This document shows positions 13,278 to 27,183 of a DNA stretch of 64,000 bases, in pieces. The notes beneath the pieces are model-generated. The model did not search any database, was not told the origin of the DNA, and saw only the letters and a list, made by a program, of their open reading frames with translations. The stretch spans positions 3,051,397 through 3,115,396 of the forward strand of contig NZ_DS544873.1 in assembly GCF_000154725.1 (NCBI RefSeq), in the 5' to 3' direction. How positions within the stretch are numbered: the stretch's first letter is position 1; every line of letters starts with the position of its first letter. Both the position numbers and the translations under genes were made by a program. This stretch comes from Kordia algicida OT-1 (GTDB lineage: Bacteria; Bacteroidota; Bacteroidia; Flavobacteriales; Flavobacteriaceae).

Positions 13278-13311
13278 CCTTTAAAAAATAATAAGAAATT
13301 TTGATACGCAA

Positions 13312-13382
13312 AGATTGATAGTTTAATTGGAAGAACACTTGGCTCATAACTAGAGGTGCGAGTTCAAGTCTCGCTCAATCTT
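13312..13382 (+). tRNA. tRNA-Met-like (CAT)
   Basis: Acceptor AGATTGA/TCAATCT pairs 7/7, the T-arm GCGAG-TTCAAGT-CTCGC is perfect, anticodon loop CTCATAA. The anticodon stem has a mismatch at its base. No CCA encoded. Confidence 0.75.
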
Positions 13383-13398
13383 TGTACAAAAAAACGGC

Positions 13399-13472
13399 AG
13401 TGATAGTAGCTCAACTGGAAGAGCACTTGCCCGACACGCAAGGGGTTTTGAGTTCAAATCTCAAGTATCATA
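13399..13472 (+). tRNA. tRNA-Val-like (GAC)
   Basis: T-arm TTGAG-TTCAAAT-CTCAA is perfect; anticodon stem CTTGC/GCAAG with loop CCGACAC. Acceptor GTGATAG/GTATCAT pairs 6/7. Position 33 is C rather than U. Confidence 0.7.
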
Positions 13473-13487
13473 TAAAAATACATACGA

Positions 13488-13559
13488 GTGTTGGTAGTTT
13501 AACTGGAAGAACACCTGGCAACCACTCAGGAAGTGCGAGTTCAAACCTTGCGCAACACT
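13488..13559 (+). tRNA. tRNA-Gly-like (ACC)
   Basis: Acceptor GTGTTGG/GCAACAC pairs 6/7, T-arm GCGAG/CTTGC, anticodon loop CAACCAC. An A34 glycine anticodon and lack of U33 are unusual for bacteria. Confidence 0.65.
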
Positions 13560-13573
13560 CGTTCCATACTGCA

Positions 13574-13646
13574 ACAGTAGTAGCTCAGTTGGAAGAGCGC
13601 ATGCCTGTCACGCATGAGGTCGCGAGTTCGAACCTCGTCTACTGTT
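13574..13646 (+). tRNA. tRNA-Asp (GTC)
   Basis: Acceptor ACAGTAG/CTACTGT 7/7, anticodon CATGC-CTGTCAC-GCATG, T-arm GCGAG-TTCGAAC-CTCGT. The best-formed member of the first tRNA group. Confidence 0.85.
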
Positions 13647-13677
13647 GCTTTTTTTTAACAAATACAAACATGTAACC

Positions 13678-17119: not shown

Positions 17120-17192
17120 GGGGATATAGTTTACCAAGCAAAAACAGTGGGTTTGCATCCCGCAGCACGGAGTGCAAGTCTCCGTATCTCCA
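17120..17192 (+). tRNA. tRNA-Ala (TGC)
   Basis: Acceptor GGGGATA/TATCTCC, anticodon GTGGG-TTTGCAT-CCCGC, T-arm CGGAG-TGCAAGT-CTCCG. The T-loop starts TG rather than TT. Confidence 0.75.
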
Positions 17193-17198
17193 CAAAAT

Positions 17199-17294
17199 GA
17201 TATTGTAGCTCAATGTTAGAGCGAAGACCTGTTAAGTCTGAGGTTGAAGAGCCTGTGCTGAACTCGATTCAGTATTCGAGTCCTTCCGATATCG
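17199..17294 (+). tRNA. tRNA-Asn (GTT) with REP hairpin in T-arm
   Basis: Acceptor GATATTG/CGATATC 7/7, anticodon loop CTGTTAA. The 25-nt hairpin (17250-17274) splits the T-arm; taking it out and restoring one G gives GAAGG-TTCGAGT-CCTTC, a perfect T-arm. Confidence 0.72.
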
Positions 17295-17298
17295 CAAT

Positions 17299-17371
17299 GA
17301 CAAGGTGGCTGAATGGCAAAGGCAGCAGTCTGCAAAACTGTTTTTTATGAGTTCGAATCTCATCCTTGTCT
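17299..17371 (+). tRNA. tRNA-Cys (GCA)
   Basis: Acceptor GACAAGG/CCTTGTC 7/7, anticodon loop CTGCAAA, T-arm ATGAG-TTCGAAT-CTCAT. The last 15 nt are repeated at 17445-17459, 88 bp downstream, so an insertion or duplication has occurred at its 3' end. Confidence 0.82.
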
Positions 17372-17444
17372 CAATGATTACGTAGTGTCAAATTCATTTG
17401 AATAATATGTAATCCAATTTGTGACTTGATGAGAAAGCACAGCA

Positions 17445-17459
17445 ATCTCATCCTTGTCT
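17445..17459 (+). repeat. Duplicate of tRNA-Cys 3' end
   Basis: ATCTCATCCTTGTCT repeats 17357-17371 exactly. The 73 nt between the copies has no gene I can see. Confidence 0.7.
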
Positions 17460-17468
17460 GTATAACTT

Positions 17469-17551
17469 GGGAATTCGCCAGAGTTGGAGAGCTGGAGCAG
17501 ACTGTAAATCTGTTGTGTAATGCTGAGTAGGTTCGAATCCTACAATTCCCA
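17469..17551 (+). tRNA. tRNA-Tyr (GTA)
   Basis: Acceptor GGGAATT/AATTCCC 7/7, anticodon CAGA-CTGTAAA-TCTG, type II variable arm, T-arm GTAGG-TTCGAAT-CCTAC. Uninterrupted. Confidence 0.88.
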
Positions 17552-17557
17552 CAAAAT

Positions 17558-17629
17558 ACGCTTGTGGTGTAATTGGCAGCATGTACGTCTCCAAAACGTA
17601 CGGTTGAGGTTCAAATCCTTGCGGGCGTG
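17558..17629 (+). tRNA. tRNA-Trp (CCA)
   Basis: Acceptor ACGCTTG/CGGGCGT with wobble pairs, anticodon GTACGT-CTCCAAA-ACGTAC, T-arm TGAGG-TTCAAAT-CCTTG. Confidence 0.83.
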
Positions 17630-17642
17630 CAAAATAAATAAT

Positions 17643-17768
17643 ATAGCTATAGTGTAATGGAAAGCACCAGAGATTTAGTTCACATGTTATCTATTTTAGA
17701 TTTAAGAGTTCGTGAATGCTTAAAGCATTTCTAACCTCTTAGTCTAAGTTCGACTCTTAGTAGCTATA
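17643..17768 (+). tRNA. tRNA with about 54-nt insert in anticodon region
   Basis: Acceptor ATAGCTA/TAGCTAT 7/7 with U8-A9, D-stem GTGT/GCAC and a perfect T-arm CTAAG-TTCGACT-CTTAG. Between the D-arm and T-arm are about 54 extra nt, including a hairpin AATGC-TTAAA-GCATT like those in the T-loop inserts. A stem TAAGAG/CTCTTA around that hairpin could be a second T-arm. The anticodon cannot be assigned. Confidence 0.6.
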
Positions 17769-17773
17769 CAAAT

Positions 17774-17845
17774 AGTATCGTGACTCAATGGTAGAGTGCT
17801 CGACTGTCTCTCGAGAAGTTGCGGGTTCGAATCCCGTCGGTACTG
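17774..17845 (+). tRNA. tRNA-Asp (GTC)
   Basis: Acceptor AGTATCG/CGGTACT, anticodon CTCGA-CTGTCTC-TCGAG, T-arm GCGGG-TTCGAAT-CCCGT. Second Asp gene of the island. Confidence 0.85.
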
Positions 17846-17858
17846 CAAAAATAACAAT

Positions 17859-17930
17859 GCTCTGTTGGTCAAACGGCGAAGACGCTACACTTTCTATGTA
17901 GAATTAAGGGTTCGATTCCCTTACAGAGTG
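17859..17930 (+). tRNA. tRNA-Glu (TTC)
   Basis: Acceptor GCTCTGT/ACAGAGT, anticodon CTACA-CTTTCTA-TGTAG, T-arm AAGGG-TTCGATT-CCCTT. Confidence 0.83.
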
Positions 17931-17936
17931 CTAAAC

Positions 17937-18072
17937 ACCTGTGTGATGGAACTGGTATACAAAACAGTCTTAAACGCTGTTGTGCGAAGCACATGTGGGT
18001 TCGAAATACTTCAGTATTCATGAACTCCATTGTATACAATAGATGTTTTGTGAACTAATCCCACCGCAGGTA
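17937..18072 (+). tRNA. tRNA-Leu (TAA) with T-loop insert
   Basis: Acceptor ACCTGTG/CGCAGGT 7/7, anticodon loop with TAA, long variable arm proper for leucine. T-stem GTGGG/CCCAC (17995-17999, 18060-18064) encloses 60 nt; an insert of about 53 nt follows TTCGAA, at the same position as in tRNA-Ser (TGA). The insert starts ATACTTCAGTATTCATGAAC and ends GTGAACTAA. Confidence 0.72.
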
Positions 18073-18078
18073 CTAAAT

Positions 18079-18152
18079 GCAGAGATGATGTAATTGGTAA
18101 ACATGCCTGACTTAGACCCAGGTTTCTGAGAGTTCGAATCTCTCTCTCTGTA
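18079..18152 (+). tRNA. tRNA-like with TAG anticodon
   Basis: Acceptor GCAGAGA/TCTCTGT, T-arm GAGAG-TTCGAAT-CTCTC, anticodon loop CTTAGAC. TAG is a leucine anticodon, but the variable arm is short, so this is not a normal tRNA-Leu. Confidence 0.65.
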
Positions 18153-18180
18153 CAAATGCAATCTTAGAAAGGAGTGCAAC

Positions 18181-18252
18181 AAGTCTATGGTGTAACGGAA
18201 AGCACATTAGTTTACGAAGCTAAGAGTATAGGTTCGATTCCTATTAGACTTA
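18181..18252 (+). tRNA. tRNA-Arg (ACG)
   Basis: Acceptor AAGTCTA/TAGACTT 7/7, anticodon TTAGT-TTACGAA-GCTAA, T-arm ATAGG-TTCGATT-CCTAT. Reads CGN if A34 is deaminated by TadA. Confidence 0.8.
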
Positions 18253-18257
18253 CAAAT

Positions 18258-18328
18258 TGACCCATGTTGTAAAGGCAGCAGGCGAGACTTTGACTCTCGA
18301 GGTAAAGGTTCGAATCCTTTTGGGTCTA
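18258..18328 (+). tRNA. tRNA-Gln (TTG)
   Basis: Acceptor TGACCCA/TGGGTCT with 6 pairs, anticodon CGAGA-CTTTGAC-TCTCG, T-arm AAAGG-TTCGAAT-CCTTT. Confidence 0.8.
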
Positions 18329-18332
18329 CTAA

Positions 18333-18405
18333 AGCGATATAGCTTAATTGGTAAAGCACTGGTCTCATAAGCCAGAAGTTGAAAGTTCGATTCTTTCTAT
18401 CACTA
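18333..18405 (+). tRNA. tRNA-Met (CAT)
   Basis: Acceptor AGCGATA/TATCACT with one mismatch, anticodon CTGGT-CTCATAA-GCCAG, T-arm GAAAG-TTCGATT-CTTTC. Confidence 0.8.
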
Positions 18406-18412
18406 CAAAAAT

Positions 18413-18485
18413 GGTGACTTTAGTTTATTTGGTAAAACGCCTCACTGTGAATGAGAAGAACAGAGTTCGATCCTCGAAGTCACCC
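18413..18485 (+). tRNA. tRNA-His (GTG)
   Basis: Acceptor GGTGACT/AGTCACC 7/7, anticodon CTCA-CTGTGAA-TGAG. The T-stem is weak (three pairs). Confidence 0.75.
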
Positions 18486-18490
18486 AAATT

Positions 18491-18563
18491 GGAGTAATGG
18501 CAGAGTTGGTCAATGCGCTGGATTGAAGTCCCAGAGATATAGGTTCGAATCCTATTTATTCCA
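18491..18563 (+). tRNA. tRNA-Phe (GAA)
   Basis: Acceptor GGAGTAA/TTATTCC, anticodon loop TTGAAGT, T-arm ATAGG-TTCGAAT-CCTAT. Confidence 0.75.
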
Positions 18564-18567
18564 CTAA

Positions 18568-18638
18568 AGAAATGTAGTTTAAAGTTAAAATAGCGAGCTA
18601 GTATCTCGAAGATGCAAGTGAAAATCTTGTCATTTCTT
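18568..18638 (+). tRNA. tRNA-Thr-like (AGT)
   Basis: Acceptor AGAAATG/CATTTCT 7/7, anticodon CGAG-CTAGTAT-CTCG, T-arm GCAAG-TGAAAAT-CTTGT. The D-arm is weak and the T-loop lacks TTC, resembling the T-arm module of the Y RNAs at 25921 and 26283. Confidence 0.6.
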
Positions 18639-18665
18639 ATTCATAATTAATAAAAACAAACAGTC

Positions 18666-19031: not shown

Positions 19032-20039
19032 ATGTTTAAAAAATATAATAGTATCGAAAATACCTACCGTGAAAAGGCTACTGCACAAGTATACCTTCAC
19101 GATTATGGAAATGAAAAATTTATTGTTCAGGAGAAAGTTCACGGAGCAAATTTTTCTTTCATTACTGATGGAACTCAAATTCAAGTTGCAAAACGTACAA
19201 GTTTGATTGCAGAAAATGAAAATTTCAACAATTATAAGTATGTGCTTCATAAATATGAAAAAGCAATCGTTGAATTGTTCAAGCTTGTAAAAAGTGATTT
19301 TCCTAAAACAGAAATGATGACTGTTTTTGGTGAAATTTTCGGAGGAAACTATCCGCATCCTACTGTAAATAAGTTTGATGGAATGGTTCGCATTCAAAAA
19401 GGTGTTTTTTACAGTCCTGAAAATGACTTTTATGCATTTGATATTTGTCTAGATCATAAACAATATCTAGATGTCACTATTGCAAATACATACTTTGAGA
19501 AAGTAGGAATGTTTTACGCAAAAACACTTTTTGAAGGAAGTTTTAGTGAATGTATGGCGTACCCAAATACATTTGAATCTAAAGTATATGAATGGCTAAA
19601 TCTTCCAAAAATTGAAGATAATATTTGTGAAGGAACCATCATCAAGCCATTAATGAGTAAACATTTTGGAAATGGACAACGTGTTATTTTTAAAAATAAA
19701 AATGAAAAATGGTCTGAAAAATCACACATAAAACGTTCAAGAATTTCAAAACCAAGTGCGACAGAAGTGCTCTCAGATACTGAAAAAGAATTGATGAACA
19801 CACTTCTAGGCTACGTAAACGAAAATCGCTTGATGAATGTACAAAGTAAACTTGGTGAATTTTCTCCAAAACAAACTGGGAAAACCATCGGATTGCTCGC
19901 CAAAGATGCTCTAGAAGATTTCGTAAAAGATCATGAAACTGATTGGGAAAATACGGAAAAGCAACATCAAAAAGTGATGACCAAAATACTAAACAAAGAA
20001 GCTGCTACTGTGGTTAAAGAAGTACTTCTTTTTAGGTAA
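19032..20039 (+). CDS. T4 Rnl2-type RNA ligase
   Basis: 335 aa, the same size as phage T4 RNA ligase 2. Motif I is QEKVHGANFSF with nucleotidyl lysine K35. Motif III is TVFGEIFGG, motif IV CEGTIIKP, motif V RVIFKNKNEKW, and a helical C-terminal domain follows, as in Rnl2. Rnl2 enzymes seal 3'-OH/5'-phosphate nicks in double-stranded RNA and in bridged structures, complementing the Rnl1-type ligase at 1210. No regulon palindrome precedes it, so it is probably read through from the tRNA array or from a promoter I cannot see. Confidence 0.92.
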   Translation: MFKKYNSIENTYREKATAQVYLHDYGNEKFIVQEKVHGANFSFITDGTQIQVAKRTSLIAENENFNNYKYVLHKYEKAIVELFKLVKSDFPKTEMMTVFGEIFGGNYPHPTVNKFDGMVRIQKGVFYSPENDFYAFDICLDHKQYLDVTIANTYFEKVGMFYAKTLFEGSFSECMAYPNTFESKVYEWLNLPKIEDNICEGTIIKPLMSKHFGNGQRVIFKNKNEKWSEKSHIKRSRISKPSATEVLSDTEKELMNTLLGYVNENRLMNVQSKLGEFSPKQTGKTIGLLAKDALEDFVKDHETDWENTEKQHQKVMTKILNKEAATVVKEVLLFR

Positions 20040-21125: not shown

Positions 21126-21611
21126 ATGGAAATAGCAGTAAACAAATGGCGAAACTTTTCAGGGAAAGTGTTTAATGAACCCATCACTACTATTGTTGAA
21201 AATGCCATTATAAAAGAACAAAAAGCTGGTCACAGATTAAAAATCTATGTGGGTTCGGATTCACAGGCGTATAAAACACATGTCGCTTATGGTACTGTGA
21301 TCGTAATTCTTAGAGAAGGAAAAGGTGGTTTTATGTTCATCAAGAACGAAAAAGGAACTACTAAAATAGGAATAAAAGAGCGTATGCTAAGAGAAGTAGC
21401 GCTATCTGTAGAAACCGCCTACCGCATTTGTGATCTATTGGAAAAGTATAAAATTGAATTGGAAGTCCATGCAGATATTAATACTGACGCAAGATTTGAA
21501 TCGAATGTGGCACTCAAAGAAGCAATGGGATATATCCTAGGAATGGGCTTTGTATTCAAAGCAAAACCTTATGCCTTTGCTAGTTCTTCTTGTGCAGATA
21601 GTATTGTTTAA
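21126..21611 (+). CDS. YkuK/DUF458-type RNase H-like protein
   Basis: 161 aa. YVGSDSQAYKTHVAYGTVIVI is the first RNase H-like strand with D45. A second acidic site lies in LEVHADINTDARFES, and the C-terminal KAKPYAFASSSCADSIV closes the fold. This matches the YkuK family of predicted ribonucleases. It is expressed from operator G and is a candidate RNA end-trimming or hybrid-cleaving enzyme of the repair regulon (the role is inference). Confidence 0.8.
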   Translation: MEIAVNKWRNFSGKVFNEPITTIVENAIIKEQKAGHRLKIYVGSDSQAYKTHVAYGTVIVILREGKGGFMFIKNEKGTTKIGIKERMLREVALSVETAYRICDLLEKYKIELEVHADINTDARFESNVALKEAMGYILGMGFVFKAKPYAFASSSCADSIV

Positions 21612-21763: not shown

Positions 21764-21771
21764 TTTAATAA

Positions 21772-22003
21772 ACCTCTTTAGCATAAAGGGAAGTGCTATG
21801 GTAGGACATTGCACTGCAATGAGCCAGATGGAGCGTTGGAAAACGTAACCATGGAGTGATTGGAAAATGTCGTTAGTGATACGCTCGCTAATGAATAGAG
21901 TTTGCAGAAGCACCGAAATACACAAGATGTAAAGTAGGGAAGCGCATTTACAGCCAATCTGTTCGTATACACGAAAGTATCGGTTCGAATCCGATAAGAG
22001 GTA
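21772..22003 (+). ncRNA. tRNA-like RNA with about 145-nt insert
   Basis: Acceptor ACCTCTT/AAGAGGT pairs 7/7, followed by canonical U8-A9, D-arm GCAT/GTGC, type II variable arm TCGT/ACGA and T-arm ATCGG-TTCGAAT-CCGAT. The D-arm and variable arm are separated by about 160 nt instead of about 17. The insert contains hairpin CATTG/CAATG, a GATTGG/CCAATC stem, and a TGTCGTTAGTGATAC sequence like the core of the Y-RNA domains at 25879-26739. Confidence 0.6.
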
Positions 22004-22064
22004 CAAGTCCACTATTTCAAGGTAAATCTTGAAAAGTAGTCAAAAGGAAATTATTAAAAAAAAA

Positions 22065-22089: not shown

Positions 22090-22257
22090 AAAATCTCGAT
22101 TATCGAGTAAAAATATCAAGCGAGTCTTGTTGCGTGTTTCTGTATAGCACCATTGTATAAAACGTTGCACAATTTGTATCATGCTTTTATATGCAACTCG
22201 ATTTGAAGGCTTTGGAATATTAGCCATATAATAATCCACCATAGGGAAACATGGGTC

Positions 22258-22318
22258 ATGGGTTCGATTCCCATTCTCTGAAAAGAGATAGTTCAGTCAG
22301 GTTAGAACAATGTTTATT
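22258..22318 (+). ncRNA. Candidate permuted tRNA-like unit P1
   Basis: T-arm ATGGG-TTCGATT-CCCAT is followed by TCTCT-GAAA-AGAGA (acceptor strands joined by a GAAA loop), then U8-A9 and D-arm GTTC/GAAC. The order is T-arm, acceptor 3', acceptor 5', D-arm, a circular permutation of tRNA. A hairpin (CCAT/ATGG) upstream could be a variable arm. Confidence 0.5.
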
Positions 22319-22323
22319 AAGTT

Positions 22324-22396
22324 GCCGGTTCGAGTCCGGTCTCTTGCCTGTCAGCGAGAGTAACTCAATTGGTAGAGTGCTACACAGTTAATGTAG
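22324..22396 (+). ncRNA. Candidate permuted tRNA-Asn-like unit P2 (GTT)
   Basis: T-arm GCCGG-TTCGAGT-CCGGT, acceptor 3' strand CTCTTGC, 6-nt linker, acceptor 5' strand GCGAGAG (7/7 pairing with the preceding strand), U8-A9, D-arm ACTC/GAGT, anticodon stem CTACA/TGTAG with loop CAGTTAA. Read linearly, the D/anticodon part has no pairing 3' acceptor; read as permuted, all stems pair. Confidence 0.55.
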
Positions 22397-22420
22397 ATCC
22401 AAGTTCGATCACTTGTAAAA

Positions 22421-22750
22421 AAGATCCCAGCCTTAACAGCTGTTTTTAATGAAAACGACGACGTATCAATCTGCTGAAGTTTCAAACGAAACCAACAGCA
22501 ATTTTGAAGTCACTTTGACATACTAAGTGCTTACTGATGGAAACTACAATTTCTTGACGATCAAATCAAACTAAAAATTCAATTATTCATTGTCTTTTGG
22601 TGCGATTCCATCCTCAAAAAAGAACTAGCGAAAATCTGTAAAATCTTTTATCTCCGTGAACGAGAAATGATTGATGCGCTTCGTTTTTACTCGAAAATCG
22701 AGATCAAAAAAAGTACAATCGCCAGTAATGGCATAATTAATAATAGAGAC
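22421..22750. other. Intergenic stretch, no gene supported
   Basis: Contains short open frames with gene-like codons (for example 22450-22527, MKTTTYQSAEVSN...) that look like decayed remnants. There is no regulon palindrome and no clear tRNA. Confidence 0.4.
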
Positions 22751-23851
22751 ATGAAACGAGTACGAATTAACACCGGAAATGTAGGTTTGGTTTTTAAAAA
22801 CGGAAACTACCAAAAAGTAATTACAGAAGGTACGTATTGGCTAAAATTTAGTCAGCATGTAACTGTGTACAATCTTACAGAGAAGTTTCATGCGCCAATA
22901 GCTAGTGAAATTTTATTGCAAGATGTCACCTTGGCAAACATGTTGGAAGTCATTGATGTAAGTGATACCGAAATTGTATTACGTCACGAAAAAGGAAACT
23001 TAATAGCGGTTTTGGAAGCTGGACAACACTTGTATTGGAAAGGTTTGGTTGAACGTACATTTACACGAATTGACCTCAGCAAAATTGAAATTACGGAAAT
23101 CAAAGACAAAAACTTGCTAAAAGATTACAGATTGGTTCAATATGTAAGAACCTTTGAAGTATTTGAATATGAAAAAGCAATCTTACTGATTGATGACAAG
23201 TTTGAGAAAATTTTAAACTCAGGTGTGTATCAATTTTGGAAGAATGCGACAAGTATCAAAATTTTAAAAGTAGACATGCGCCAGTTGCAACTTGAAATTG
23301 CTGGTCAAGAATTATTGACAAAAGACAAAGCGGCAATTCGAATCAACTTTTACACACAATACAAAGTGATCGATATCAAAAAAGCAATCTTAGACAATAA
23401 AGACTTTGAAAAGCAACTATATATTGCAATGCAGTTGAAACTGAGAACTTTTGTTGGAAACTACACGTTGGATGAATTACTCGATCAAAAAGAAAACATT
23501 GCCAATGCTGTTTTTGAAAATGTAAAAGATGCAGCAGAAAACTTGGGAATTCAAGTATTATATTGCGGAATTCGCGATGTGATTTTAACAGGTGAAATGA
23601 AAGAAATCATGAATCAAGTTTTAATCGCACAGAAAAAAGCGCAAGCAAACATCATTACGCGTCGTGAAGAAACAGCTTCTACCAGAAGCTTACTAAACAC
23701 CGCAAAGTTGATGGAAGAAAATGCAATGTTATATCAATTGAAAGAAATGGAATATGTTGAAAAAATTGCAGACAAAATCGGCGAAATTACTGTTGCTGGA
23801 AATGGCGGTGTCGTCAAGCAATTAAAAGATATATTTTCAGTCAATAAATAG
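22751..23851 (+). CDS. SPFH/Band-7 (slipin-like) protein
   Basis: 366 aa from the ATG at 22751 (MKRVRINTGNVGLVFKNGNY); longer in-frame starts upstream lack similarity to the family. The core has the stomatin/prohibitin pattern: FEVFEYEKAILLIDDKFEKIL, then VDMRQLQLEIAGQELLTKDKAAIRINFYTQYKVID and a long helical end with QVLIAQKKAQANIITRREETASTRSLLNTAKLM. There is no obvious N-terminal membrane span, so it is probably a soluble scaffold. Band-7 proteins recur in predicted RNA-repair systems; it could organise Ro60 or ligases into oligomers (inference). Confidence 0.8.
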   Translation: MKRVRINTGNVGLVFKNGNYQKVITEGTYWLKFSQHVTVYNLTEKFHAPIASEILLQDVTLANMLEVIDVSDTEIVLRHEKGNLIAVLEAGQHLYWKGLVERTFTRIDLSKIEITEIKDKNLLKDYRLVQYVRTFEVFEYEKAILLIDDKFEKILNSGVYQFWKNATSIKILKVDMRQLQLEIAGQELLTKDKAAIRINFYTQYKVIDIKKAILDNKDFEKQLYIAMQLKLRTFVGNYTLDELLDQKENIANAVFENVKDAAENLGIQVLYCGIRDVILTGEMKEIMNQVLIAQKKAQANIITRREETASTRSLLNTAKLMEENAMLYQLKEMEYVEKIADKIGEITVAGNGGVVKQLKDIFSVNK

Positions 23852-24183: not shown

Positions 24184-25713
24184 ATGAAATTTAATGTATT
24201 TACAAAAAAACGTACACAAGTCATTACAAATCATCAAGGTGAAAAAGCCTATAAAATGACTCCTGAAATGGAATTGTATAGTGCCGTAGTAACTACTAGC
24301 TTAGAAAAAACTACATACGAAAACACATCCGATCGTGTAAAACGAATCCAAAAATTGGTTCGAAATTGCGATCCTGTATTTGTAGCAAAGTTAGCCGTAT
24401 ACGCACGTACAAAAATGAACTTACGATCAATTCCTGTGGTATTAGCTGTAGAATTGGGTAAAATTCACAAAGGTGATAATTTGGTTAGCAAAACTATTTA
24501 TAATATCGTACAACGTGCGGATGAAATCACAGAAGTCTTGGCATATTACCAAACAGCAAACAAACGAAATGGTGTTAAAAAATTAAATCGTTTATCGAAA
24601 CAAGTTCAAAAAGGTATTGCGAAAGCATTTACAAAATTTGACGAATATCAATTTGCAAAATACAACCGTAAAGGTGATGTAACCTTAAAAGACGCATTGT
24701 TTTTAACACATCCAAAAGCAACAAGTGAAGATCAACAATATATATTCAACAAAATTGTGAACAATAATTTGGAAACTCCATACACTTGGGAAGTTGAATT
24801 ATCGAAAGTTGGTCAGCAATATTTCGCTTCCGCAGAAGCAAAACGAGAAGCTGTCAAAGCCACTTGGGAAACTTTAATCTACAGTAAAAAGGTTGGTTAT
24901 ATGGCAATCATGCGAAACTTACGCAACATTTTACAAGCTGATGTTTCTCCAGATTGTATCAGTCAAGTAGCTAATTATTTAAGTAACGAACAAGCCGTTT
25001 TACGTTCGCGTCAATTGCCGTTCCGATTCTTGTCAGCCTATAATGAAATACAATTGATAAACTCGCCTTATACATCGTACATCTTGGAAGCATTGGAAGA
25101 TGCTATTCAAATAAGTGCGCAAAATATTCAAGGTTTTGATATTCATACACGTGTATTGATGGCGTGTGATGTTTCTGGTTCAATGTTTAGTCCGGTTTCT
25201 AAAAAAAGCAAAATACAATGTTATGATATCGGTTTGGTATTGGCAATGTTATTACAAAACCGTTCCAACAATACGATAACAGGTATTTTTGGTGATCGTT
25301 GGATGCCATACAATTTACCGAAAAAAGGTATTTTACGTAATGTAACTGCCTTAAAGAAAATTGAAGGTAAAGTTGGTTACGCAACCAATGGTTATAAAGT
25401 AATCGAGTATTTGAATCAAAATAAGAAAGTGATGGATAAAGTCTTTTTCTTTACAGATTTGCAAATGTGGAATAGCAATTATCGCAACAACAATCATATC
25501 CAAAAGGAATGGTTAAAATACAAGCGAAACGTAGCGCCACATGCAAAATTGTACTTGTTTGATTTAATGGGTCATGGTCAAGCGCCATTGCGAATTGAAC
25601 AAAACGACGTGCATTTAATTGCAGGTTGGAGTGATAAAGTTTTTGAAGTAATGCATGCTATTGAAAATGGTAACAAAGCATTATCAGAAATAAAAAAAAT
25701 AAAATTTGAATAA
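24184..25713 (+). CDS. rsr: Ro60-like TROVE domain protein (Rsr)
   Basis: 509 aa. The N-terminal about 320 residues are the helical TROVE ring (TSDRVKRIQKLVRNCDPVFVAKLAVYARTK..., PVVLAVELGKI, DALFLTHPKA, a WE-rich segment, YMAIMRNLRNIL, LPFRFLSAYNEI). The C-terminal part is a von Willebrand A domain with MIDAS D329-V-S-G-S-M and a later FFFTDLQMW. Bacterial Ro60 proteins bind Y RNAs and help 3' exonucleases degrade or mature structured RNA. Here the gene has its own copy of the regulon promoter, and a Y-RNA-like array follows it, as expected for an Rsr locus. Confidence 0.93.
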   Translation: MKFNVFTKKRTQVITNHQGEKAYKMTPEMELYSAVVTTSLEKTTYENTSDRVKRIQKLVRNCDPVFVAKLAVYARTKMNLRSIPVVLAVELGKIHKGDNLVSKTIYNIVQRADEITEVLAYYQTANKRNGVKKLNRLSKQVQKGIAKAFTKFDEYQFAKYNRKGDVTLKDALFLTHPKATSEDQQYIFNKIVNNNLETPYTWEVELSKVGQQYFASAEAKREAVKATWETLIYSKKVGYMAIMRNLRNILQADVSPDCISQVANYLSNEQAVLRSRQLPFRFLSAYNEIQLINSPYTSYILEALEDAIQISAQNIQGFDIHTRVLMACDVSGSMFSPVSKKSKIQCYDIGLVLAMLLQNRSNNTITGIFGDRWMPYNLPKKGILRNVTALKKIEGKVGYATNGYKVIEYLNQNKKVMDKVFFFTDLQMWNSNYRNNNHIQKEWLKYKRNVAPHAKLYLFDLMGHGQAPLRIEQNDVHLIAGWSDKVFEVMHAIENGNKALSEIKKIKFE

Positions 25714-25726
25714 TTAATTTAGGTAG

Positions 25727-25762
25727 TGCGCAAAATTACTGCGCACTACTTTACAACATTTG
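25727..25762 (+). promoter_or_regulatory. Operator copy F with -7 element (tRNA-Gly and Y RNA array)
   Basis: TGCGCAAAATTACTGCGCA (25727-25745), 9 nt, AACATTTG (25755-25762). It is followed by a tRNA and seven Y-RNA-like domains, no protein gene for 990 nt. Confidence 0.85.
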
Positions 25763-25781
25763 TCCCATCAAATAAAAACAA

Positions 25782-25853
25782 GCAGATAAGGTGTTTTTGG
25801 TTGCATCGTAGACTTCCACTCTATTGGAGCGAGTTCGAATCTCGCTATCTGCT
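25782..25853 (+). tRNA. tRNA-Gly (TCC)
   Basis: Acceptor GCAGATA/TATCTGC 7/7, anticodon TAGA-CTTCCAC-TCTA, T-arm GCGAG-TTCGAAT-CTCGC, D-stem GTGT/GCAT. It starts about 15 nt after the predicted start site of the Y RNA transcript, so tRNA processing (RNase P, RNase Z) could release the Y RNAs. Confidence 0.8.
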
Positions 25854-25878
25854 CAAAAGTTCATTGAAACAACAATAA

Positions 25879-26014
25879 TTATAAGTGTCGTCAAGAAGAA
25901 ATACTTCGATTCAAAGCGAACTGGTTGCAAGTGAAATTCTTGCGTTTTCGAGGAGAAAGTCGTTTAAATAGGACCCAGAAAGAACAAAATTCTTCTACTA
26001 AAATTACCTTATAA
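25879..26014 (+). ncRNA. Y-RNA-like domain a
   Basis: Outer stem TTATAAG/CTTATAA, 5' internal strand TGTCGTCA, inner stem AGAAGAA/TTCTTCT, then ATACTTCG; 3' internal strand ACTAAAATTAC. The distal part has a T-arm-like GCAAG-TGAAATT-CTTGC followed by a D-arm-like GTC...GAC. Confidence 0.78.
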
Positions 26015-26024
26015 ATTATACAAA

Positions 26025-26097
26025 AGGAAAATGCCGTCAGAATAGGAATACATCGATCCAAAAGAAAAAAGATCCTATTCGCTTCTTTGCTTTTCCT
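26025..26097 (+). ncRNA. Y-RNA-like domain b
   Basis: Outer stem AGGAAAA/TTTTCCT, 5' TGCCGTCAG, inner stem AATAGGA/TCCTATT, then ATACATCGA; 3' strand CGCTTCTTTGC. A short form without tRNA-like arms, ending in a T run so it can terminate transcription. Confidence 0.78.
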
Positions 26098-26109
26098 TTT
26101 TAAAAATAA

Positions 26110-26207
26110 AATGATAGTGTCGTATCAAAGTGTTACTTCGGCGATTTCACGCGGGTTTGAAAAAAACCTTTTTTAAAAAAAGCACTTTAACTCATTTACC
26201 TATCATT
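26110..26207 (+). ncRNA. Y-RNA-like domain c
   Basis: Outer stem AATGATAG/CTATCATT, 5' TGTCGTAT, inner stem AAAGTG/CACTTT, then TTACTTCGG; 3' strand AACTCATTTAC. The distal part has a GGTTT/AAACC hairpin. Confidence 0.78.
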
Positions 26208-26238
26208 CATTAAAAAAATATTCATTGAAATCACAACA

Positions 26239-26369
26239 TATAAGTGTCGTAAAAAAGGAATACTTCGTTTTAATCTCAGGATGCAAGTGCGAGTCTTGCC
26301 TTTCATAAAGAAAGTCGTTTAACTAGCTAAGACATGAGGAAAAGTCCCTTTTTGAATCGTAACCTTATA
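26239..26369 (+). ncRNA. Y-RNA-like domain d
   Basis: Outer stem TATAAG/CTTATA, 5' TGTCGTA, inner stem AAAAAAGGA/TCCCTTTTT (one mismatch), then ATACTTCG; 3' strand GAATCGTAAC. Distal T-arm-like GCAAG-TGCGAGT-CTTGC, CTTTC/GAAAG acceptor-like stem and D-arm-like GTC...GAC. Confidence 0.78.
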
Positions 26370-26371
26370 CT

Positions 26372-26446
26372 TGGAAAATGCCGTCTATACAGGAATACAT
26401 CGACTGTTAATCGCACTAAAATCCTGTAAAACTTATTGCTTTTCCT
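26372..26446 (+). ncRNA. Y-RNA-like domain e
   Basis: Outer stem GGAAAA/TTTTCC, 5' TGCCGTC, inner stem TACAGGA/TCCTGTA (covaries with AATAGGA/TCCTATT of domain b), then ATACATCGA; T run at the end. Confidence 0.78.
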
Positions 26447-26462
26447 CTTTTTTAAAAATATA

Positions 26463-26570
26463 AATATTAGTGTCGTACTAAAGTGTTACTTCTGGTTAGA
26501 TTAGGTTCGAATCCTAACCGTCTCAACCATTGAGATGCGTTTCACACTCTAGGCTTATTTACCTAATATT
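26463..26570 (+). ncRNA. Y-RNA-like domain f
   Basis: Outer stem AATATTAG/CTAATATT, 5' TGTCGTAC, inner stem TAAAGTG/CACTCTA (one mismatch), then TTACTTC; 3' strand GGCTTATTTAC. The distal part has a T-arm TTAGG-TTCGAAT-CCTAA. Confidence 0.78.
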
Positions 26571-26586
26571 TTCAATATCAAACATA

Positions 26587-26739
26587 AAAACAAGTGCCGT
26601 AAAAAAGTGATACTTCGCACTCGAATGCCGTGGTCGTGGGTTCGAGTCCCACCTCTCCTACTAAATCGCACTTTAAAGGAGAGTAGCTCAGTGGTTAGAG
26701 CACGTAAACTAAACACTTTTTGAACAATTGCCTTGTTTT
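26587..26739 (+). ncRNA. Y-RNA-like domain g with permuted tRNA module
   Basis: Outer stem AAAACAAG/CTTGTTTT, 5' TGCCGTAA, inner stem AAAAGTG/CACTTTT, then ATACTTCG; 3' strand TGAACAATTGC. Between the stems: T-arm GTGGG-TTCGAGT-CCCAC, CTCTCCT, 17-nt linker, AGGAGAG (7/7 pairing), U8-A9, D-arm GCTC/GAGC. This is a tRNA cut open at the acceptor end order and grafted by its anticodon side onto the Y stem. Confidence 0.78.
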
Positions 26740-26754
26740 CTAATTTATATTATA

Positions 26755-27183
26755 ATGTTACGCTTACTAAAAAAACTAATGAAACTCTTTAAAAAAGAGA
26801 AAGAAGAACCTAAAATAAAAACACTTGAAATCAGTGAAGATATCATCCTAAGTATTATGGACAAACTTTCTGAATTTGAGCGAAAGCAAGGTTTTTTAAA
26901 ACAAGTAACATTGCATTCATTAGCAAAAAAACTAGGGACGAATCCTAAATATCTTTCTAAAATTATCAACATTCACTATGAGAAAAATTTTAGTTCGTAT
27001 ATCAATGACTTACGAATTCAATATCTTCTCAGAGAATTGAAACAAGACGATTCATTAAAAACACAAACGGTAAAAGCAATTGGAAAGAAAATAGGTTTTG
27101 GAAATACGGAATCATTCACAAAAACATTTAAAAAGCATACAGGAATCAATCCTTCACAATATTTAAACTCATTAAAAGAATAA
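26755..27183 (+). CDS. AraC-type helix-turn-helix protein
   Basis: 142 aa from the ATG at 26755, just 15 nt after Y domain g. The basic N-terminus (LKKLMKLFKKEKEE) is followed by two AraC-family HTH motifs: VTLHSLAKKLGTNPKYLSKIIN and VKAIGKKIGFGNTESFTKTFKKHTGINPSQYL. No sensor domain. The HTH is very like the C-terminal domain of the TPR regulator at 58018, so it may be a truncated relative. A terminator follows at 27228. Whether it controls the RNA island or the lanthipeptide locus is not shown. Confidence 0.8.
   Translation: MLRLLKKLMKLFKKEKEEPKIKTLEISEDIILSIMDKLSEFERKQGFLKQVTLHSLAKKLGTNPKYLSKIINIHYEKNFSSYINDLRIQYLLRELKQDDSLKTQTVKAIGKKIGFGNTESFTKTFKKHTGINPSQYLNSLKE

What the first reader, a model, noticed from the sequence alone, without database searches (positions are those of the whole stretch)
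25879..26739. Seven tandem Y-RNA-like domains downstream of the Ro60 gene
Seven units share one architecture: outer stem of 6-8 bp, 5' internal-loop strand TGYCGTnn, inner stem of 6-9 bp followed by WTACWTCG, then a variable distal part, then a 10-11-nt 3' internal-loop strand ending in TTAC, TTGC or TAAC. Stem sequences differ between units but stay paired (for example AATAGGA/TCCTATT versus TACAGGA/TCCTGTA; AATGATAG/CTATCATT versus AATATTAG/CTAATATT versus AAAACAAG/CTTGTTTT). This covariation shows selection on RNA structure. Bacterial Ro60 proteins bind Y RNAs that are usually encoded nearby, often singly or as a few copies; seven in tandem, in long (tRNA-like) and short (terminator-like) forms, is unusual.
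Basis: partly seen in the sequence, partly recalled or inferred. Interest (0 to 1): 0.95.

Follow-up and report, generated by a model that had tools for sequence, protein, structure and literature searches.

The report
Seven tandem Ro60-partner Y RNAs
Next to the gene for the ring-shaped RNA-binding protein Ro60, a marine bacterium carries a row of seven small RNAs that share one conserved handle (predicted to grip Ro60) but bear different heads, one of them a rearranged tRNA look-alike; such rows turn out to be common beside Ro60 in its phylum, and this one is headed by the same short signal that heads the cell's ribosomal RNA genes.

Summary
Window 25879-26739 of a Kordia genome holds seven tandem units with paired outer and inner stems, TGYCGT and WTACWTC, just downstream of a TROVE/vWA Ro60 gene. 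They are bacterial Y RNAs: unit 7 carries a circularly permuted tRNA domain (Rfam YrlA 39.5 bits, below the 69-bit cut-off), and the same handle occurs beside Ro60 across Bacteroidota, in Thiofilum and in phages. A covariance model of the short units hit 16 of 395 Bacteroidota genomes, all 16 among the 32 with a Ro60-like match. 'Seven is unusual' holds only partly: 26 of 33 loci have three or more. Units 1-2-3 were duplicated to 4-5-6. New here: the array leader carries the genome's own rRNA boxA (AGTTCATTGA) between a tRNA-Gly and unit 1, with a variant before unit 4; boxA motifs precede units in other lineages too, not in most. Sister Kordia carry a further unit with a 28/30 match to 23S rRNA helix 69/70. 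Transcription, Ro60 binding and antitermination are inferred, not shown.

The parts
24184..25713 (+). Ro60 (TROVE + vWA_Ro60) gene, 509 aa
   Evidence: Pfam PF05731 1.9e-32 and PF25045 1.1e-10; the only gene matched by the TROVE search of the genome (two segments of this gene)
25723..25749 (+). hairpin after ro60, possible terminator
   Evidence: GTAGTGCGC/GCGCACTAC read; similar hairpins after ro60 in L010, L047, L048; its 9-nt loop is outside the range of the terminator scan
25782..25854 (+). tRNA-Gly(TCC), first gene of the presumed transcript
   Evidence: ARAGORN, Rfam 49.3 bits; kept in L005 and L010
25858..25869 (+). boxA-like motif AGTTCATTGAAA, 9 nt before U1
   Evidence: AGTTCATTGA is also in the rrn leaders and 16S-23S spacers of the same genome
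25879..26014 (+). Y unit U1 (long, 136 nt)
26022..26100 (+). Y unit U2 (short, 79 nt)
   Evidence: model R1 63.6 bits (U2 is one of its training rows)
26110..26207 (+). Y unit U3 (98 nt)
26220..26230 (+). second boxA-like motif ATTCATTGAAA, 8 nt before U4
   Evidence: lies in the duplicated block
26239..26369 (+). Y unit U4 (long, T-arm-like head)
   Evidence: paralogue of U1; weakest free fold (8 of 17 expected pairs)
26373..26445 (+). Y unit U5 (short), followed by a T run
   Evidence: model R1 64.4 bits (training row); paralogue of U2
26462..26571 (+). Y unit U6 (T arm TTCGAAT and an acceptor-like hairpin)
   Evidence: paralogue of U3
26587..26739 (+). Y unit U7 (153 nt), permuted tRNA head: T arm, closed acceptor stem, D arm
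   Evidence: Rfam YrlA RF02553 39.5 bits at 26628-26707; T and D arms
25855..26572 (+). tandem duplication: block 25855-26209 (boxA-U1-U2-U3) and block 26216-26572 (boxA'-U4-U5-U6)
   Evidence: 246 of 332 aligned bases identical; score 326 against at most 171 in 200 shuffles; repeat spacing 347-363

Best explanation
A gene array for seven bacterial Y RNAs that partner the adjacent Ro60. Shown by sequence: each unit has one handle, an outer helix of 6-10 bp, one unpaired U, a G-C and a Y-R pair, a small asymmetric loop (CGU on the 5' side), an inner helix, and UACWUC at its top; the heads beyond differ. Inferred: the handle is the Ro60-binding site; the array is transcribed as one precursor from a promoter after the ro60 hairpin (tRNA-Gly - boxA - U1-U2-U3 - boxA' - U4-U5-U6-U7), boxA letting RNA polymerase read through a long untranslated structured RNA (with a terminator-like T run after U5) as in rRNA operons; the precursor is cut between the units, which lie 3-31 nt apart. 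Each Y RNA then docks on Ro60 and decides what Ro60 does: U7, the tRNA mimic, would tether an effector such as PNPase, as in the Ro60/Y RNA/PNPase complex (RYPER) of Deinococcus; the short units would occupy Ro60 without that tether. The array makes one Ro60 ring fit several adaptors. Confidence by step: Y RNAs of this Ro60 about 0.95; handle geometry about 0.9; boxA acting in antitermination about 0.6; adaptors with distinct jobs about 0.5.
For: Ro60 domains. Seven units clustered beyond chance. Same handle beside Ro60 at 33 loci (127 units). Y-R pair, not used to find units: 107 of 127 Watson-Crick plus 14 T.G; within-locus shuffles mean 72, best 93, 0 of 20,000 reach 107; 0.80 bit with that position and at most 0.12 with the other six. 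Formal count on 22 short units: handle helix 100% of cells paired, 7 of 8 pairs changed on both sides, covariation score 0.656 against 0.285 (sd 0.026), 0/500 shuffles, slid controls at most 0.30; two of its five measures (pairs with a double change; further pair types) did not exceed the shuffles. Model R1 hits 16 of 395 genomes, all among the 32 with a Ro60-like match, and all 33 hits lie within about 2 kb of that gene. Array DNA strongly present in 3 of 11 Kordia genomes, the same 3 that have Ro60. U7 and YrlA. boxA: AGTTCATTGAMA occurs 10 times in 5.03 Mb, 5 in rRNA operons, once here; motif 5-12 nt before a unit 9 times among 28 hits in 26 loci. RYPER and tRNA mimicry from PMC4726728 and PMC8394870 (passages read).
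Against: No RNA-seq, no binding data. U7 stays below Rfam's YrlA cut-off (39.5 against 69), though YrlA-like hits beside phage and Thiofilum Ro60 do too (best 50). Heads of U1 and U3 were not recognised as tRNA-like, U4 and U6 only by a T arm, and U4 and U6 have a broken inner pair; among orthologous Kordia helices 8 pair comparisons were compensatory, 2 one-sided and 10 broken in one species. Sister loci lack U1 (L010) or U4 (L005), so single units are dispensable. R1 missed 16 of the 32 Ro60-like genomes, scored only the best 12 candidates per genome with strict filters, and was trained on units of many of the genomes it hit. boxA-type motifs directly before a unit were found in 6 of 26 loci (plus L003, outside that set), in none of the Chitinophaga, Sporocytophaga and most other loci. 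One weak array hit (43 nt, E 6e-4) in a Kordia genome without Ro60.
Confidence: 0.78

Rival explanations
1. Only U7 is a working Y RNA (YrlA type); U1-U6 are decaying duplicates without function.
For: Heads of U1 and U3 not recognised, U4 and U6 partial; U1 or U4 absent in sister species; 10 broken pairs in the orthologue comparisons and 2 between paralogues.
Against: Handle pairs of U1-U6 persist with compensatory changes between paralogues (5) and between species (8 comparisons, not independent); U2, U3, U5, U6 are present in all three Kordia loci; short units with the same handle recur in other families.
Confidence: 0.12
2. The units are cis elements (terminators, attenuators or processing hairpins) of the ro60 or downstream HTH transcript.
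For: Position between ro60 and an AraC-type HTH gene; 36 of 127 units, among them U5, are followed by at least 5 T in 8 nt.
Against: In L005 the array lies about 3 kb from ro60, beyond other DNA; the handle is shared with phages and Thiofilum beside Ro60; tRNA mimicry has no use in that role.
Confidence: 0.04
3. The array is a decoy bank for anticodon nucleases: tRNA-like heads soak up a tRNA-cleaving toxin, next to an RNA ligase and tRNA arrays.
For: RNA ligase 2 gene at 19032, 19 of the genome's 61 tRNA hits in the window; PMC7790460 (passages) suggests YrlA's tRNA-like part might inhibit an anticodon nuclease.
Against: Anticodon-like loops are not enriched: 11 of 92 units with a T arm (12%), against 10.3% in shuffles; U2 and U5 have no T or D arm.
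Confidence: 0.08
4. The boxA-like motif is a chance match and each unit has its own promoter.
For: 4 of 10 copies of AGTTCATTGAMA in the genome lie outside rRNA operons and the array, without a tRNA within 1.5 kb; the promoter scan found 6 sites against 4.2 expected and does not cover Bacteroidota promoters.
Against: Nine motifs at 5-12 nt before units in 6 loci of at least 3 lineages, while the other 19 are scattered over both strands of the 26 loci; spacers of 3-31 nt leave little room for promoters.
Confidence: 0.25

Closest known systems
Bacterial Y RNAs / YrlA (Rfam RF02553), Salmonella yrlBA, Deinococcus Y RNA
   Same: Beside Ro60/rsr; lower stem binds Ro60; tRNA-like head, permuted in the Rfam model, in U7; more than one Y RNA per locus (rsr-yrlBA, PMC7790460 passages).
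   Different: Seven units, tandem triplet duplication, short heads without tRNA mimicry, boxA leader; U7 39.5 bits, under Rfam's cut-off. Whether Chen et al. 2014 (not held; recalled) already lists such arrays could not be checked.
Vertebrate Y RNAs (Rfam RF00019)
   Same: Helix, single bulged base and a bulge opposite as Ro60 site (PMC4726728 passages).
   Different: No Rfam match; the unpaired base is U not C; heads unrelated.
rRNA operon and CRISPR-array boxA antitermination
   Same: Same motif as the genome's own rrn boxA, ahead of long untranslated RNA; boxA is reported before CRISPR arrays and raised precursor RNA about 10-fold in a synthetic one (PMC7862264 passages).
   Different: Not known to me for Y RNAs; a library search for 'Y RNA' with 'boxA' gave one unrelated paper.
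tRNA arrays of bacteria and phages
   Same: tRNA-Gly and two tRNA clusters nearby; Ro60 lies inside a tRNA array in Arthrobacter phage Atuin.
   Different: In Y units the tRNA domain is permuted and its acceptor stem closed, so there is no free acceptor end.

Membership tests
Bacterial Y RNA | encoded beside a Ro60/Rsr gene | tested here: met
   co-occurrence
Bacterial Y RNA | conserved lower-stem architecture shared with YrlA-type RNAs of other groups | tested here: met
   TGGTGTA...TTACTTC...GTTCC in Xanthomonas phage (L106) and Thiofilum (L012), TGGCGTA in phage CcrColossus (L109), same layout
Bacterial Y RNA | at least one unit per locus with a tRNA-like head (criterion recalled from Chen et al. 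2014) | tested here: met
   U7; T and D arms in 48 of 127 units, in 30 of 33 loci
Rfam YrlA RF02553 | score at or above the curated cut-off of 69 bits (a curator's threshold, not a biological feature) | tested here: not met
   39.5 bits, U7 only; taken as bacterial Y RNA on the features above, not filed under this Rfam model
Bacterial Y RNA | binds Ro60 and is stabilised by it | not testable with these tools
   needs pull-down
Bacterial Y RNA | tRNA-like head tethers PNPase; modified by DusA/TruB | not testable with these tools
   stated for YrlA in PMC8394870 (passages)
Vertebrate Y RNA RF00019 | match to the family model | tested here: not met
   not among the matches up to E 10
boxA antiterminator | sequence of the organism's own rrn boxA ahead of a structured, untranslated stretch | tested here: met
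   that the rrn motif is boxA rests on its position before 16S and 23S and on recalled boxA consensus
boxA antiterminator | NusB-NusE binding and read-through | not testable with these tools
   needs reporter assay

The most novel reading that the evidence does not exclude
Ro60 loci of Bacteroidota are swappable libraries of RNA mimicry: one fixed Ro60 handle, many heads (permuted tRNA, partial tRNA, short loop, and in sister Kordia a copy of 23S rRNA helix 69/70), made (in some lineages) as one rRNA-style, boxA-antiterminated transcript, so that one Ro60 ring is aimed at different RNA enzymes or substrates, including ribosome-directed ones.
Probability: 0.3. Interest if true: 0.85.

Novelty: new variant of a known kind. 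Interest (0 to 1): 0.58.

Why it matters
Bacterial Ro60 and Y RNA function has been studied in very few species. Arrays with a constant handle and variable heads show by natural covariation what the Ro60 site probably needs (helix, unpaired U, G-C and Y-R pairs), and offer ready sets to ask whether different Y RNAs send Ro60 to different partners. A boxA leader would add Y RNAs to the transcripts thought to use rRNA-type antitermination.

Tried and rejected
Anticodon-arm mimicry as a general feature: rejected, 11 of 92 against 10.3% in shuffles. Intrinsic terminators: scan found 0 in 25600-26850, but it allows loops of 3-8 only; the T run after U5 leaves that open. Rfam in 25700-26800 besides YrlA and tRNA: sub-threshold matches only, among them tmRNA and permuted tmRNA on U7's T arm. 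Sequence anchor alone as a genome-wide marker: 27 hits, control 36. The four copies of the boxA motif outside rRNA and array (1208419-, 2819443, 3593442-, 4067024): no tRNA by ARAGORN in their 3-kb loci, contexts printed, not followed further; the fifth, 1894440-, has the rrn leader sequence and lies about 4 kb from a third 23S match, although the 16S search listed two 16S genes only. RNA-X: no viral match to one 19-base core. 23S-like head: no viral match to an 18-base junction. Rows dropped before the covariation count: 16 places named by hand (off-array matches, one double, and probable true units in a wrong register: L012 5805, L106 2009, L062 8260, L049 5750, L050 7902) and all with score under 8.5, among them L005 U3; duplicate fetches of one locus were left out. 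In one search, 22 of 27 short units were aligned (near-duplicates left out); the inner helix is out of register in part of that alignment (67% paired). Papers not held: Chen 2014, Sim and Wolin 2018, Wang 2018, Stringer 2020. Correction on re-check: I had first read the array of the two sister species as much less alike than their 23S-like unit; measured, it is 88.7-92.2% against 97.9%.

Full report
WHERE. The window is G000:C1:3051397-3115396 of a 5.03-Mb one-contig genome. Two loci found with its Ro60 protein, at 91-92% identity, come from records titled Kordia sp. (L005, L010), and the genus set contains contigs of those same lengths, so the window is a Kordia. Ro60 is at 24184-25713 with TROVE and vWA_Ro60 domains. 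TROVE is rare nearby: 2 of 299 genomes of the family sample; by the Ro60 protein, 3 of 11 Kordia and 32 of 395 genomes of the phylum sample (E <= 0.001, several of them distant or partial matches); each count includes this genome.

THE UNITS. Seven units, 73-153 nt long and 3-31 nt apart, run from 25879 to 26739. Chance controls: 0/200 shuffles for five units, 2/200 for U1, 4/200 for U4; of 13 anchors elsewhere in the genome the best scored 12.7, above U4. Free folding gives all or all but one of the expected handle pairs in 6 of 7 units, and 8 of 17 in U4. Block 25855-26209 (boxA-U1-U2-U3) and block 26216-26572 (boxA'-U4-U5-U6) share 246 of 332 aligned bases, score 326 against at most 171 in 200 shuffles: a tandem duplication. 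Both sister loci have U2, U3, U5, U6 and U7; L005 lacks U4, L010 lacks U1 (sequences; the L005 U3 was found by anchor only and fell below the pairing score). The simplest reading is that the seven-unit state is older than these species.

THE HANDLE. With one descriptor (TGNYGT) I counted 127 units at 33 loci (drops told under Tried and rejected; some loci are from close relatives). The third base of TGN pairs with the last but one base of the 3' strand: C-G 57, T-A 42, G-C 8, T.G 14, others 6. This pair took no part in finding the units. Within-locus shuffling gives 72 Watson-Crick pairs on average, 93 at most, and never the observed 107 in 20,000. With the neighbouring G-C (122 of 127), the outer helix goes on past one unpaired U. 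The formal count on 22 short units gives 100% paired cells in that helix, 7 of 8 pairs changed on both sides, covariation score 0.656 against 0.285 in shuffles; the counts of doubly changed pairs and of pair types were no higher than in shuffles, and the inner helix is partly out of register there. The invariance of the T, the G and the CGT is partly built into the descriptor and is no evidence. Vertebrate Y RNAs have a helix, one bulged C and a three-base bulge opposite as Ro60 site (PMC4726728, passages): a similar plan, by comparison of descriptions only.

LINK TO RO60. A covariance model from the short units (R1) hit 16 of 395 phylum genomes, all in the list of 32 with a Ro60-like match and none of the other 363; all 33 hits lie within about 2 kb of the Ro60 match (the two samples agree in size, tallies and handles). 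R1 was trained on units from many of these genomes, missed the other 16 of the 32, and only the best 12 candidates per genome were scored, so absence means absence at that sensitivity. In Kordia the array DNA has strong matches in the 3 genomes with Ro60, and one weak 43-nt match in one of the 8 without.

HEADS. A T arm is found in 92 of 127 units, and a D arm after it (permuted order) in 48, by loose patterns; 30 of the 33 loci have at least one such unit (counted from that list), in line with what I recall of Chen et al. 2014. In the window U7 has both and is hit by Rfam YrlA with 39.5 bits; U6 and U4 have T arms; U2 and U5 are short. The best YrlA-like hits beside phage and Thiofilum Ro60 score 50, 42.5, 42.3 and 39.6, also under the 69-bit cut-off.

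ARRAY SIZE. Units per locus: 7 (three loci), 6 (two), 5 (seven), 4 (seven), 3 (seven), 2 (three), 1 (four).

BOXA. Between tRNA-Gly and U1 stands AGTTCATTGAAA; AGTTCATTGACA stands before 16S and again before 23S in the two rRNA operons fetched. The 12-mer AGTTCATTGAMA occurs 10 times in the genome: 5 in rRNA operon leaders or spacers (the fifth recognised by its leader sequence), one here, 4 elsewhere. Over the 26 loci a looser motif occurs 28 times, 9 of them 5-12 nt before a Y unit: window twice, L005 twice, L010 twice, L011 (Butyricimonas), L047, L048; L003, outside that set, has one too. It is absent before units in 20 of the 26 loci. boxA raised precursor RNA of a synthetic CRISPR array about 10-fold (PMC7862264, passages). 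That it works so here is inference. U5, with its T run (TCTTTTTT, kept as a T run in both sisters), is the one unit that looks like a terminator and would be a place where read-through matters.

MECHANISM. Ro60 with a Y RNA and PNPase forms RYPER, in which the Y RNA tethers the nuclease and gates RNA entry (PMC4726728 and PMC8394870, passages). I infer that the array supplies one Ro60 with several adaptors, made together from one transcript and kept under selection for the handle while the heads diverge. Against a fully functional set stand decayed heads, broken pairs and absent units.

NOVELTY. The kind, Y RNAs beside bacterial Ro60, is known; Salmonella has two in one operon (PMC7790460, passages). 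New as far as I could see: the Y-R pair and unpaired U as a covarying handle, the boxA leader (library search for 'Y RNA' with 'boxA': one unrelated paper), the triplet duplication, and the 23S-like head in sister species. Key subscription papers were not held, so earlier notice of arrays or of the pair cannot be excluded.

Noticed in passing
L005 3412-3650 and L010 3553-3790: A Y unit upstream of Ro60 in two sister Kordia carries in its head a stretch with 28 of 30 bases of Kordia 23S rRNA (helix 69/70 region, name recalled), folding as a 4-bp hairpin with the same 7-nt loop. The unit is 233 of 238 alike in the two species (97.9%), their shared array parts 88.7-92.2%. Not found in the window.
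   Followed up: partly
window 21765-22012: RNA-X: a tRNA-like outline (acceptor, D arm, T arm) with about 150 nt in place of the anticodon arm; relatives in L007, L008, L009 as first element after Ro60, in G361 about 2 kb from Ro60, and in G392 and G388, which had no Ro60 match. 6 of 395 phylum genomes matched, two of these only in the T-arm end; no Rfam gathering hit on it in window or L007-L009.
   Followed up: partly
window 22250-22420: Two permuted-tRNA modules in tandem (T arm - acceptor hairpin - D arm) followed by anticodon-like and T-arm-like parts, without a Y handle found; conserved in L005 3786-3969 and L010 3932-4110 (YrlA 37.9, 28.2 and 30.5 bits there).
   Followed up: partly
window 13311-13648 and 17120-18639: Two tRNA clusters; 19 of the genome's 61 Rfam tRNA hits lie in the window, with odd anticodons Gly-ACC and Thr-AGT. 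tRNAs also lie near Ro60 in L003, L005, L010, L053, L065 and phage Atuin, but 25 of the 30 loci had none.
   Followed up: no
window 19032-20039, 21126-21611, 22667-23851: RNA ligase 2 (T4 Rnl2 type), an RNase H-like protein and a Band 7 protein precede Ro60; Rnl2 and Band 7 are kept in both sister Kordia loci, the RNase H-like one in L005 only.
   Followed up: no
L065 4263-4413: A tRNA-Lys ends at the first base of a Y unit, as if tRNA processing freed the Y RNA's 5' end.
   Followed up: no
short units, e.g. window 26048-26072, L007 7972, L046 and L053: Several short units share a TCCAA..TGAAA-like head after TACTTC; a smaller group shares CTGTCACG.
   Followed up: no
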